In this document: one piece after another, positions 24,478 to 27,102 of the stretch
How the letters are laid out: every line of letters begins with the position of its first letter
Numbering within the stretch: the stretch's first letter is position 1
Origin: an uncultured Acetatifactor sp.
GTDB lineage: Bacteria; Bacillota; Clostridia; Lachnospirales; Lachnospiraceae
DNA: 64,000 bases
Direction of reading: 5' to 3'
Assembly (NCBI GenBank): GCA_947625475.1
Contig: CANQOL010000010.1
Span: 1-64,000 of the forward strand
The notes under the pieces: model-generated
Database searches by the model: none
What the model was told of the DNA's origin: nothing
The model's input: the letters and a program-made list of their open reading frames with translations, nothing else
Made by a program: the position numbers and the translations under genes

Positions 24478-27102
24478 ATGGAGCAGTATATTGTGACGGG
24501 AATGAGTTGCGCGGCCTGCAGCGCCCGGGTGGAGAAGGCGGTTTCCAAGGTGCCGGGGGTGGCCTCCTGCACGGTGAATCTGCTGACGGGAACCATGGGA
24601 GTGGAGGGAAGCGCTCTCCCCGGGGAGGTGATCCGGGCGGTGGAAGAGGCCGGTTACGGGGCGTCCCGCCGGGAGAGCGGCGCCTCTGCCGCCCGGGCCG
24701 CGGAGAAGGGCGGGGATCCGGGAGCGGGAGAGGCCCTGCGGGACCGGGAGACCCCGGCCATGAAGAGAAGGCTTTCGGCCTCCCTGGTGTTCCTGGCGGC
24801 GCTGATGTATCTTTCCATGGGGCATATGATGTGGAACTGGCCGGTTCCCGCTTTCCTGGAGGGGAACCACGTGGCCATGGGGCTGCTGCAGCTTCTGCTG
24901 ACGGGGGCGATTATGGTGATCAACCAGCGCTTCTTTGTGAGCGGCGTGCGGGGGCTGCTCCATCGGGCCCCCAACATGGACACCCTGGTGGCTCTGGGAG
25001 CGGGGGCGGCCTTTGGGTACAGCACCTACGCCCTCTTTGCCATGACGGGGGCCCAGGCCCGAGGGGACGCGGCGGCGGTCATGGCCTATATGCATGAGTT
25101 TTATTTTGAGTCGGCGGGCATGATCCTGACCCTGATCACCGTTGGAAAGCTGCTGGAGGCCCGCTCCAAGGGGAAAACCACCGACGCTCTGAAAGGGCTT
25201 ATGAGCCTGGCGCCCAAGACGGCCACCTTGTTGGTGGAGGGGCAGGAGAAGGAGGTCCCCGCCTGGCAGGTAAAGAAGGGGGACATATTTGTGGTGCGCC
25301 CCGGGGAAAATATTCCGGTGGACGGTCTTGTGCTGGATGGGGAGAGCGCGGTGAACGAGGCGGCTCTCACGGGGGAGAGCATCCCTGTGGACAAGGGGCC
25401 GGGGGACGGCGTGTCCGCAGCCACTGTGAACCAGTCCGGCTTCCTGAAATGCCAGGCGTCCCGGGTGGGGGAGGATACCACCCTCTCCCAGATCATCCGC
25501 ATGGTCAGCGATGCGGCGGCCACCAAGGCCCCCATCGCCAAGGTGGCGGACCGGGTTTCCGGAGTGTTCGTGCCGGCAGTGATAGGGGTGGCGGCGGTCA
25601 CAATCCTGGCCTGGCTTCTGGCCGGTGAGAGCGTGGGATTTGCCCTGGCCCGGGGCATTTCGGTGCTGGTGATCAGCTGTCCCTGCGCCCTGGGGCTGGC
25701 CACTCCGGTGGCTATCATGGTGGGGAGCGGCGTGGGCGCCAGAAACGGCATCCTGTTTAAAACAGCGGTTTCCCTGGAGGAAACCGGAAAGCTGGAAATC
25801 CTGGCCCTGGACAAGACTGGAACCATCACCCGGGGAGAGCCCCAGGTGACGGAGCTTCTGCCCCGGGAGGGAATCCGGCCTCAGGAGCTGCTGGAGCTGG
25901 CCTGCTCTCTGGAGAAAAAGAGCGAGCACCCTCTGGCCAAGGCGGTTCTGCGCAGGGCCGGGGAGGAAGGGATCGCCCCCCGGGAGGTCACGGAGTTCCA
26001 GGCTCTGCCGGGGAGCGGCCTGACCGCCCGGCTGGAGGGAGAGGTGCTTCTGGGCGGAAGCCTGGCGTTTATCGGCAGCCGGCCGGAGCTGGCCCCCCAG
26101 ATGGAGGGCTGGGTTAAGGAGCAGGCCGACGCCCTTTCCCAGGAGGGAAAGACGCCCCTGCTCTTTGCCAGGGGAGGCAGGCTTTTGGGCATTATCGCCG
26201 TGGCGGATGTGCTCAAGGAGGACAGCCCTCAGGCCATAGAGGAACTGCGCGCCATGGGCATCCGGGTGGTGATGCTCACCGGGGACAACCGGCGCACCGC
26301 CCAGGCCATCGGCCGGCAGGCAGGAGTGGATAAGGTGATCGCCGGAGTGCTGCCCGACGGCAAGGAGGCGGTGGTCCGGAGCCTGAAGGAGCAGGGCAAG
26401 GTGGGCATGGTGGGAGACGGAATCAACGACGCTCCCGCTCTGACCCGGGCGGACATGGGGATTGCCATCGGGGCCGGCGCGGACATCGCTGTGGACGCGG
26501 CGGACGTGGTGCTCATGAAGAGCCGGCTGCGGGATGTGCCTGCGGCCATACGCCTGAGCCGGGCAACCCTGCGGAACATCCACCAGAACCTGTTCTGGGC
26601 GTTCTTTTACAATGTGATCGGGATCCCCCTGGCCGCGGGAGTGTGGATCCCTCTCTTCCACTGGCAGCTGAATCCCATGTTCGCGGCGGCGGCCATGAGC
26701 CTTTCCAGCTTCTGCGTGGTCACCAACGCCCTGCGGCTGAACCTGACCCGCATCTATGACGGAAGCCGGGACGCAAAGAGGGCCGGGAAGAGGAAGAAGG
26801 GCAGGCTGTCCGGGGCGGAGCCGGAGACAGAGACCGCCGCCCGGGAAGAAAAACAAGAGGAAAAACAGGAAGAAAAAAAGGAGGAAATGAAAATGGAAAA
26901 GACACTGACAATCCAGGGAATGATGTGCGGGCACTGCGAGGCCCGGGTGAAAAAGAGCCTGGAGGCGCTGCCTCAGGTGAGCCAGGCCCAGGTGAGCCAT
27001 GAGACGGGCAAGGCTGTGGTGACCCTCACCGGGGAGATCTCCGACGAGGCCCTGAAGAAGGCCGTGGAGGACCAGGACTACCAGGTGACGGACATTCAGT
27101 AA
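24478..27102 (+). CDS. copA: Copper-exporting P1B-type ATPase CopA with C-terminal CopZ-like domain
   Basis: CopA pumps Cu(I) out of the cell using ATP. The 874-residue protein has an N-terminal metal-binding domain (GMSCAACS, C11 and C14), eight predicted membrane helices, the CPC copper site at 401-403, the phosphorylated Asp D445 in DKTGT, and the hinge MVGDGINDAPAL. A charged linker of repeated EEKQ units (about 790-805) is followed by a second, CopZ-like domain (GMMCGHC, C817 and C820). A C-terminal metal domain is rare, and an internal start may also release it as free CopZ. The gene follows csoR by 117 nt under the CsoR operator. Confidence 0.95.
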   Translation: MEQYIVTGMSCAACSARVEKAVSKVPGVASCTVNLLTGTMGVEGSALPGEVIRAVEEAGYGASRRESGASAARAAEKGGDPGAGEALRDRETPAMKRRLSASLVFLAALMYLSMGHMMWNWPVPAFLEGNHVAMGLLQLLLTGAIMVINQRFFVSGVRGLLHRAPNMDTLVALGAGAAFGYSTYALFAMTGAQARGDAAAVMAYMHEFYFESAGMILTLITVGKLLEARSKGKTTDALKGLMSLAPKTATLLVEGQEKEVPAWQVKKGDIFVVRPGENIPVDGLVLDGESAVNEAALTGESIPVDKGPGDGVSAATVNQSGFLKCQASRVGEDTTLSQIIRMVSDAAATKAPIAKVADRVSGVFVPAVIGVAAVTILAWLLAGESVGFALARGISVLVISCPCALGLATPVAIMVGSGVGARNGILFKTAVSLEETGKLEILALDKTGTITRGEPQVTELLPREGIRPQELLELACSLEKKSEHPLAKAVLRRAGEEGIAPREVTEFQALPGSGLTARLEGEVLLGGSLAFIGSRPELAPQMEGWVKEQADALSQEGKTPLLFARGGRLLGIIAVADVLKEDSPQAIEELRAMGIRVVMLTGDNRRTAQAIGRQAGVDKVIAGVLPDGKEAVVRSLKEQGKVGMVGDGINDAPALTRADMGIAIGAGADIAVDAADVVLMKSRLRDVPAAIRLSRATLRNIHQNLFWAFFYNVIGIPLAAGVWIPLFHWQLNPMFAAAAMSLSSFCVVTNALRLNLTRIYDGSRDAKRAGKRKKGRLSGAEPETETAAREEKQEEKQEEKKEEMKMEKTLTIQGMMCGHCEARVKKSLEALPQVSQAQVSHETGKAVVTLTGEISDEALKKAVEDQDYQVTDIQ
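26893..27102 (+). CDS. Internal-start CopZ-like copper chaperone (in frame within copA)
   Basis: An in-frame ATG at 26893 is preceded by a consensus AGGAGG (26879-26884) with 8-nt spacing. From there the product is a complete 69-residue heavy-metal-associated domain: MEKTLTIQGMMCGHC start, KKSLEALP helix, VTLTGEIS strand, and a normal C-terminus. This is the size of free CopZ chaperones, and no separate copZ gene is seen nearby. Two proteins from one gene would match the known E. coli case in which copA also yields a small chaperone by frameshifting. Use of this start is inferred from the sequence. Confidence 0.55.
   Translation: MEKTLTIQGMMCGHCEARVKKSLEALPQVSQAQVSHETGKAVVTLTGEISDEALKKAVEDQDYQVTDIQ

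What the first reader, a model, noticed from the sequence alone, without database searches (positions are those of the whole stretch)
26878..27102. Internal start inside copA may release a free CopZ chaperone
The CopA C-terminus is a complete CopZ-size metal domain after an EEKQ-rich linker. A consensus AGGAGG with 8-nt spacing to an in-frame ATG (26893) lies exactly at the domain border. A single gene could make both pump and chaperone, reached differently from the E. coli copA frameshift. No separate copZ is seen nearby.
Basis: partly seen in the sequence, partly recalled or inferred. Interest (0 to 1): 0.72.

Follow-up and report, generated by a model that had tools for sequence, protein, structure and literature searches.

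The report
Copper pump gene hides a chaperone
The gene for this bacterium's copper-exporting pump ends in a complete copper-chaperone-like domain that has its own ribosome-binding sequence and start codon, a layout kept in over nine tenths of the related fused genes examined, so one gene likely makes both the pump and a free chaperone.

Summary
copA (24478-27102) ends in a second HMA domain; AGGAGG (26879-26884) stands 8 nt before an in-frame ATG (26893) at the domain border. The window alone proves little: 70% of synonymous shuffles of its Lys/Glu-rich linker reach the same Shine-Dalgarno (SD) strength. Of 306 distinct fused copA loci, 284 have ATG plus SD at this border and 4 more GTG or TTG plus SD. 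The SD peaks 9-12 nt before the ATG; the linker upstream is barely conserved. Glu codons at the SD are GAG:GAA 184:5, against 69:194 elsewhere in the linker. The domain carries a CopZ-type CxHC motif, not the pump-type CAAC, and its predicted fold matches CopZ best. In 13 of 20 relatives without the fusion, a separate copZ-like gene with SD follows copA. Most likely a copA-copZ operon fused in frame and kept copZ's start, so ribosomes make the pump and, by internal initiation, free CopZ. Free CopZ has not been shown; I had no expression data. My searches of CC-licensed PMC papers listed no report of it.

The parts
24478..27102 (+). copA: P1B-type copper ATPase, 874 aa, HMA at both ends
   Evidence: CPCALG motif in the translation
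24487..24657 (+). N-terminal HMA domain of the pump, GMSCAAC (CAAC type)
   Evidence: motif census
26737..26892 (+). variable Lys/Glu-rich linker between the last transmembrane segment and the C-terminal domain
   Evidence: low pairwise identity
26879..26884 (+). internal Shine-Dalgarno AGGAGG
   Evidence: conservation
26893..26895 (+). predicted internal start codon ATG, at the position (8 residues before GMxC) where most relatives keep an ATG
26893..27102 (+). nested copZ: 69-aa CopZ-like domain plus stop, predicted also as a free product
26926..26937 (+). CGHC metal-binding motif of the C-terminal domain (CxHC type)
23968..24360 (+). upstream CsoR-family (PF02583) metal-sensing repressor; start ATG inferred

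Best explanation
The 3' end of this copA is a fused copZ-like domain with its own AGGAGG (26879-26884) and ATG (26893), which are predicted to start a free 69-residue copper chaperone from the same mRNA that makes the full-length pump. Shown here: the SD-ATG pair, its conservation in relatives, and the CopZ-like character of the domain. Inferred: an ancestral copA-copZ operon (a layout still seen in relatives) lost the stop codon between the genes, so ribosomes starting at copA now read on and make a pump with a tethered chaperone domain. Ribosomes binding the old copZ start would make free CopZ. The two initiation rates would set the ratio of pump to chaperone, with transcription likely under CsoR. 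Free CopZ would load copper onto the pump, as recalled for other Bacillota.
For: Census: 356 loci examined, 3 without copA, 19 duplicates, 334 distinct; 306 fused by the script's motif, of which 284 ATG+SD, 2 GTG+SD, 2 TTG+SD (one marginal at -5.0), 7 ATG with weak SD, 11 no start. Strength at ATGs chosen by position only (291 loci): mean -9.43 kcal/mol; synonymous null -6.09 (sd of mean 0.18, 200 shuffles); null with linker codon usage -4.26; other in-frame ATGs -2.78 (n 6850). Position (220 loci): hybridisation averages -9.4 at -12 and -8.3 at -9 nt, about -1 from -39 to -18. Codons: Glu four codons before the ATG GAG:GAA 184:5, against 69:194 in the linker. Register: first GG of the SD in three registers, 217/26/4, over 23 dipeptides (247 loci). 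The 60 nt around the ATG are little structured: MFE -1.9 against -14.3 in the gene body (part of this is low GC, 0.33 against 0.53). The internal SD is as strong as copA's own (-9.59, 220 loci, against -8.60, 210 loci). C-domain CxHC in at least 257 of 268; N-domain CAAC or a close variant in all 237 scored. Of 20 non-fused loci, 14 have an HMA gene with ATG within 420 nt downstream of copA, 13 of them with SD and 11 with ATG at the same -8 position. Model of the 69 aa, pLDDT 96; best PDB match by fold CopZ 6ff2.
Against: No expression data. The window's own SD is nearly forced by its amino acids (70% of shuffles). 18 of 306 fused loci lack a start with SD. The own genome has other lone HMA ORFs (the C28 one matches the C-domain profile at 6e-19), and by my count of the list, 24 of 32 start-bearing genomes have a lone HMA ORF over the Pfam cut-off, so a free HMA protein need not come from copA. 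A weaker SD-like peak lies inside the domain at +21 to +27 (-3.4 to -4.9). The loci are related and lean to the best matches of the window's copA, so counts are not independent events.
Confidence: 0.86

Rival explanations
1. Fossil: copA and copZ fused in frame and the old copZ start is only a remnant; only the fused pump is made.
For: Split copA/copZ neighbours exist with the same arrangement, so the SD plausibly descends from a gene start.
Against: The linker upstream has diverged to 0.30-0.42 pairwise identity while the SD stays at 0.67, and Glu codons at the SD stay GAG. A remnant would be expected to decay.
Confidence: 0.05
2. Pausing signal: the internal SD slows elongation so that the membrane pump or the last domain folds correctly; no initiation.
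For: SD-like sites inside genes have been proposed to slow ribosomes; the abstract of PMC5100845 (abstract and opening text seen) calls this controversial and reports fewer such sites than expected in highly expressed genes.
Against: A pause needs no start codon at fixed spacing: ATG exactly 8 residues before GMxC in 245 of 306 loci, GTG or TTG in a few, with little structure around it.
Confidence: 0.04
3. Protein-level constraint: Met and Glu/Lys residues at the border are needed for docking or folding, and the SD is a by-product.
For: KE is the commonest dipeptide at the site (121 of 247), and the residues after the Met are conserved (consensus MxKTMKIEG).
Against: Codon choice at the SD is extreme; the SD persists in other registers and residues (GE, GD, GG, ME, QE and others); GTG or TTG replace ATG in a few loci.
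Confidence: 0.02
4. Frameshift or slippage at the A7 run (26873-26879) ends the pump before the domain (TGA 26888-26890 in the +1 frame) and the ribosome restarts at 26893.
For: A7G precedes the SD here; the +1 frame stops after KKRRK.
Against: AAAAAAG near the end of the linker occurs in only 54 of 247 relatives, so it is not the conserved element.
Confidence: 0.03

Closest known systems
E. coli copA: pump and CopZ chaperone from one gene (Meydan 2017 and Drees 2017; papers not read, recalled and seen cited in passages of PMC10187127, PMC12589874 and PMC7558416)
   Same: One gene for a copper pump and a free HMA chaperone
   Different: E. coli uses programmed frameshifting and releases the N-terminal domain (the latter recalled); here an in-frame internal start at the 3' end would release the C-terminal domain
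copA-copZ operons of related bacteria
   Same: Same gene order, CxHC-type chaperone, similar SD-ATG-GMxC spacing
   Different: Two genes with a stop codon between; here one open frame
In-frame internal initiation pairs such as clpB (PMC11005335, passages seen)
   Same: Two products from one frame by a second start
   Different: There an N-terminally shortened form of the same protein; here a membrane pump and a separate soluble carrier domain
CopA with metal-binding domains at both ends (Archaeoglobus fulgidus CopA, recalled)
   Same: HMA at both ends of the pump
   Different: I recall no internal start there; not tested here

Membership tests
CopZ / Atx1-like copper chaperone | complete ferredoxin-like fold (beta-alpha-beta-beta-alpha-beta) of about 70 aa | tested here: met
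   model of 69 aa, pLDDT 96.3, E-H-E-E-H-E; best PDB match by fold CopZ 6ff2, TM 0.90; by sequence, copper-ATPase HMA domains rank above CopZ entries
CopZ / Atx1-like copper chaperone | GMxCxxC metal motif, of the CxHC kind | tested here: met
   GMMCGHC; census. That CxHC marks CopZ is recalled, and fits most of the separate copZ-like genes seen
CopZ / Atx1-like copper chaperone | exists as a free soluble protein | not testable with these tools
   needs proteomics or ribosome profiling
CopZ / Atx1-like copper chaperone | binds Cu(I) and delivers it to CopA | not testable with these tools
   needs biochemistry
P1B-1 copper ATPase CopA | E1-E2 ATPase, HAD hydrolase, HMA and CPC motif | tested here: met
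   PF00122, PF00702, PF00403; SCPCALG in the translation
In-frame internal initiation (nested gene) | SD at working distance from an in-frame start, conserved beyond codon constraint | tested here: met
In-frame internal initiation (nested gene) | shorter product or initiating ribosome observed | not testable with these tools
   no expression data
E. coli-type copA programmed frameshift | conserved slippery site that ends one product beside the chaperone domain | tested here: not met
   A6G in 54 of 247 relatives; in the window both shifted frames lose the C-terminal domain

The most novel reading that the evidence does not exclude
Across the Bacillota group sampled, copper-pump genes are genes within genes: in-frame fusion of a copA-copZ operon kept copZ's ribosome-binding site alive inside copA, giving a second route, opposite in polarity to E. 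coli's frameshift, by which one gene makes a tethered and a free chaperone at a ratio set by two start sites. Where the internal start is lost, a separate chaperone gene tends to sit just downstream.
Probability: 0.6. Interest if true: 0.85.

Novelty: new variant of a known kind. Interest (0 to 1): 0.78.

Why it matters
If true, pump and chaperone have been packed into one gene at least twice by different translational tricks, and hundreds of bacterial genomes would carry a hidden copZ inside copA. It offers a clean, testable case of a domain fusion that keeps its old start site under selection, and warns that annotation by longest open frame can hide nested genes.

Tried and rejected
Window-only statistics: not decisive. 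Frameshift or slippage at the A7 run: not conserved. Complementation by a separate chaperone: among 256 loci with at least 400 nt of downstream flank (12 of 268 dropped for short flank), a separate HMA gene follows copA in 8 of 15 without a usable start and 3 of 241 with one (Fisher p 2e-9). But two of the 8 (L281, L298) are near-identical, a tree-aware test had only 3 supported independent pairs (on average 1.5 the same way, 0 the other; not significant), and lone HMA ORFs elsewhere are common in start-bearing genomes (24 of 32, counted). I treat it as suggestive. Parsing: the script behind searches left out 25 of 326 loci; one search recovered them by BLAST. Two loci counted as not fused (L381, L382) carry a C-terminal HMA with D/E before MSCQHC and an ATG with SD of -5.7, so the truer count is 290 of 308 with a start plus SD. 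Codon and register figures rest on loci chosen partly by SD strength; one search repeats the Glu test on 220 loci chosen by ATG position only. Sampling: loci lean to the best matches of the window's copA; for I picked 60 listed class rows by hand, including likely split ones, before seeing their SD. One of six search peptides covers the window's own SD region; it occurs in no locus but the window's own. Literature: listings (titles and starts of abstracts) showed no report of an internal start for CopZ in copA; only CC-licensed PMC papers are covered and most listed papers were not opened.

Full report
What is there. copA runs from ATG 24478 to TAA 27102 behind a CsoR-family repressor gene. 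Pfam finds E1-E2 ATPase, HAD hydrolase and two HMA stretches, one at each end. The C-terminal domain is preceded by a Lys/Glu-rich linker that holds AGGAGG at 26879-26884, then 8 nt, then ATG 26893. Translation from there gives 69 aa, 7.55 kDa, which matches HMA over nearly the whole profile.

Is it chance in this window? By hybridisation energy the site scores -11.6 kcal/mol, but 70% of 300 synonymous shuffles of its own linker reach that. The window alone cannot decide.

Comparative census. I searched for copA in relatives (60 of 61 genomes with a match at E 1e-3), the family (379 of 397 at 1e-100), named genomes (best 80 loci kept) and the class (236 of 291 at 1e-150), and for the C-domain by profile in the phylum (245 of 398 at 1e-12). 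Only part of these was read as loci: those the searches returned plus 160 stretches fetched. None was chosen for an SD. In one search, 356 loci were examined: 3 lacked copA, 19 were duplicates, 334 were distinct, the window's own included. Of these 306 were scored as fused to a C-terminal HMA, 27 as not fused, 1 was cut. Of 306: 284 ATG+SD (energy -5 or better), 2 GTG+SD, 2 TTG+SD (one marginal), 7 ATG with weak SD, 11 without. The ATG lies exactly 8 residues before GMxC in 245. By source, a start plus SD is present in 143 of 153, 68 of 72, 63 of 66 and 14 of 15. Two of the 27 proved fused on inspection, both with ATG and SD.

Selection on the mRNA. With the ATG chosen by position only (291 loci), mean SD energy is -9.43; synonymous shuffles by gene codon usage give -6.09 (lowest of 200 means -6.55), by linker codon usage -4.26; 6850 other in-frame ATGs average -2.78. 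The SD peak lies 9-12 nt upstream and falls to about -1 further up the linker; a weaker peak (-3.4 to -4.9) lies inside the domain at +21 to +27. At the SD codon Glu is GAG in 184 and GAA in 5, against 69 and 194 elsewhere in the linker. Mean pairwise identity is 0.67 over the SD, 0.30-0.42 in the linker upstream, 0.43 between SD and ATG and 0.62 in the domain. The SD is written in three codon registers and 23 dipeptides. The 60 nt around the ATG are little structured, also in the window (-1.9 kcal/mol, GC 0.37 against 0.65 for copA).

What the domain is. N-terminal HMA motifs are CAAC or close variants in all 237 loci scored; C-terminal ones are CxHC in at least 257 of 268. The predicted structure of the 69 aa has pLDDT 96 and its best PDB match by fold is CopZ 6ff2, TM 0.90; by sequence alone HMA domains of copper ATPases rank above the CopZ entries. 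In the phylum search the domain occurs both in long open frames of about 830-980 aa and in short ones of about 70-140 aa.

Origin. Of the 20 non-fused loci, 14 have an HMA gene with ATG within 420 nt after the copA stop; 13 of these have an SD of -5 or better and 11 have the ATG at -8. In L034 the SD follows the stop almost at once. L408, L412 and L416 of the phylum search also have such a gene after copA, with SD. Six of the 20 show no such gene there. A very short fusion, L031, looks like such a junction read through. I infer stop-codon loss between copA and copZ; the tree needs 8 changes between fused and non-fused (FastTree, weak support), direction not inferred.

Loss of the start. Where no usable start remains, a separate HMA gene follows copA in 8 of 15 loci, against 3 of 241 with a start. 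Four of the 8 belong to a CGMC-type family that also has an unlinked member in this genome. The tree-aware test is not significant. In the L088/L090/L097 group the extra gene occurs with the start kept (two loci) and with it lost (one), as if the extra gene came first; this is a guess from three loci.

Mechanism and limits. The best reading is two initiation sites on one mRNA: full-length CopA with a tethered CopZ domain, and free CopZ. Shown: conservation and domain character. Not shown: that free CopZ is made, binds copper, or is regulated. The listings I saw from CC-licensed PMC papers held no report of it. The E. coli frameshift case is known to me from recall and from passages in papers that cite it.

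Noticed in passing
window 24361-24472 (repeat about 24371-24469); partial copy 44564-44625 (-): Most of the csoR-copA gap is one copy of a roughly 99-bp interspersed repeat able to form hairpins, with 43 matches (itself included) in the own genome, most 79-87% identical; it ends about 8 nt before copA's ATG. Its fold is not significantly better than shuffles (z -1.8), and no Rfam family reached its threshold there.
   Followed up: partly
L005 1535-3406 (-) and 3419-3715 (-): A second metal P-type ATPase of the own genome has an HMA domain as a separate gene directly upstream: the reverse arrangement to copA.
   Followed up: no
L006 3000-3299 (-): Lone HMA protein with GMMCGMC and a PYEKK tail; look-alikes are the extra gene downstream of copA in four start-less relatives (L085, L097, L111, L149) and three start-bearing ones (L088, L090, L092).
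   Followed up: partly
L045, L048, L075, L078, L083, L091, L121, L138, just upstream of copA: Small HMA ORFs (IEGMHCxxCKNSVE type) lie 5' of copA in eight of 151 relatives checked; in L048 it begins with a membrane-anchor-like stretch and a CC-GGG motif.
   Followed up: no
L161, downstream of copA: An HMA domain fused to a long hydrophobic protein follows copA.
   Followed up: no
L381, L382: C-terminal HMA with Asp or Glu in place of the usual Gly before MSCQHC; fused, with ATG and a modest SD.
   Followed up: partly
window 21044-23443: ORF upstream of csoR with a signal-peptide-like start, long Pro/Glu/Ala/Thr repeats and Cys-rich modules, by eye.
   Followed up: no
window 26873-26879: A7 run right before the internal SD; the +1 frame hits TGA within a few codons. 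A similar run occurs in only 54 of 247 relatives.
   Followed up: yes
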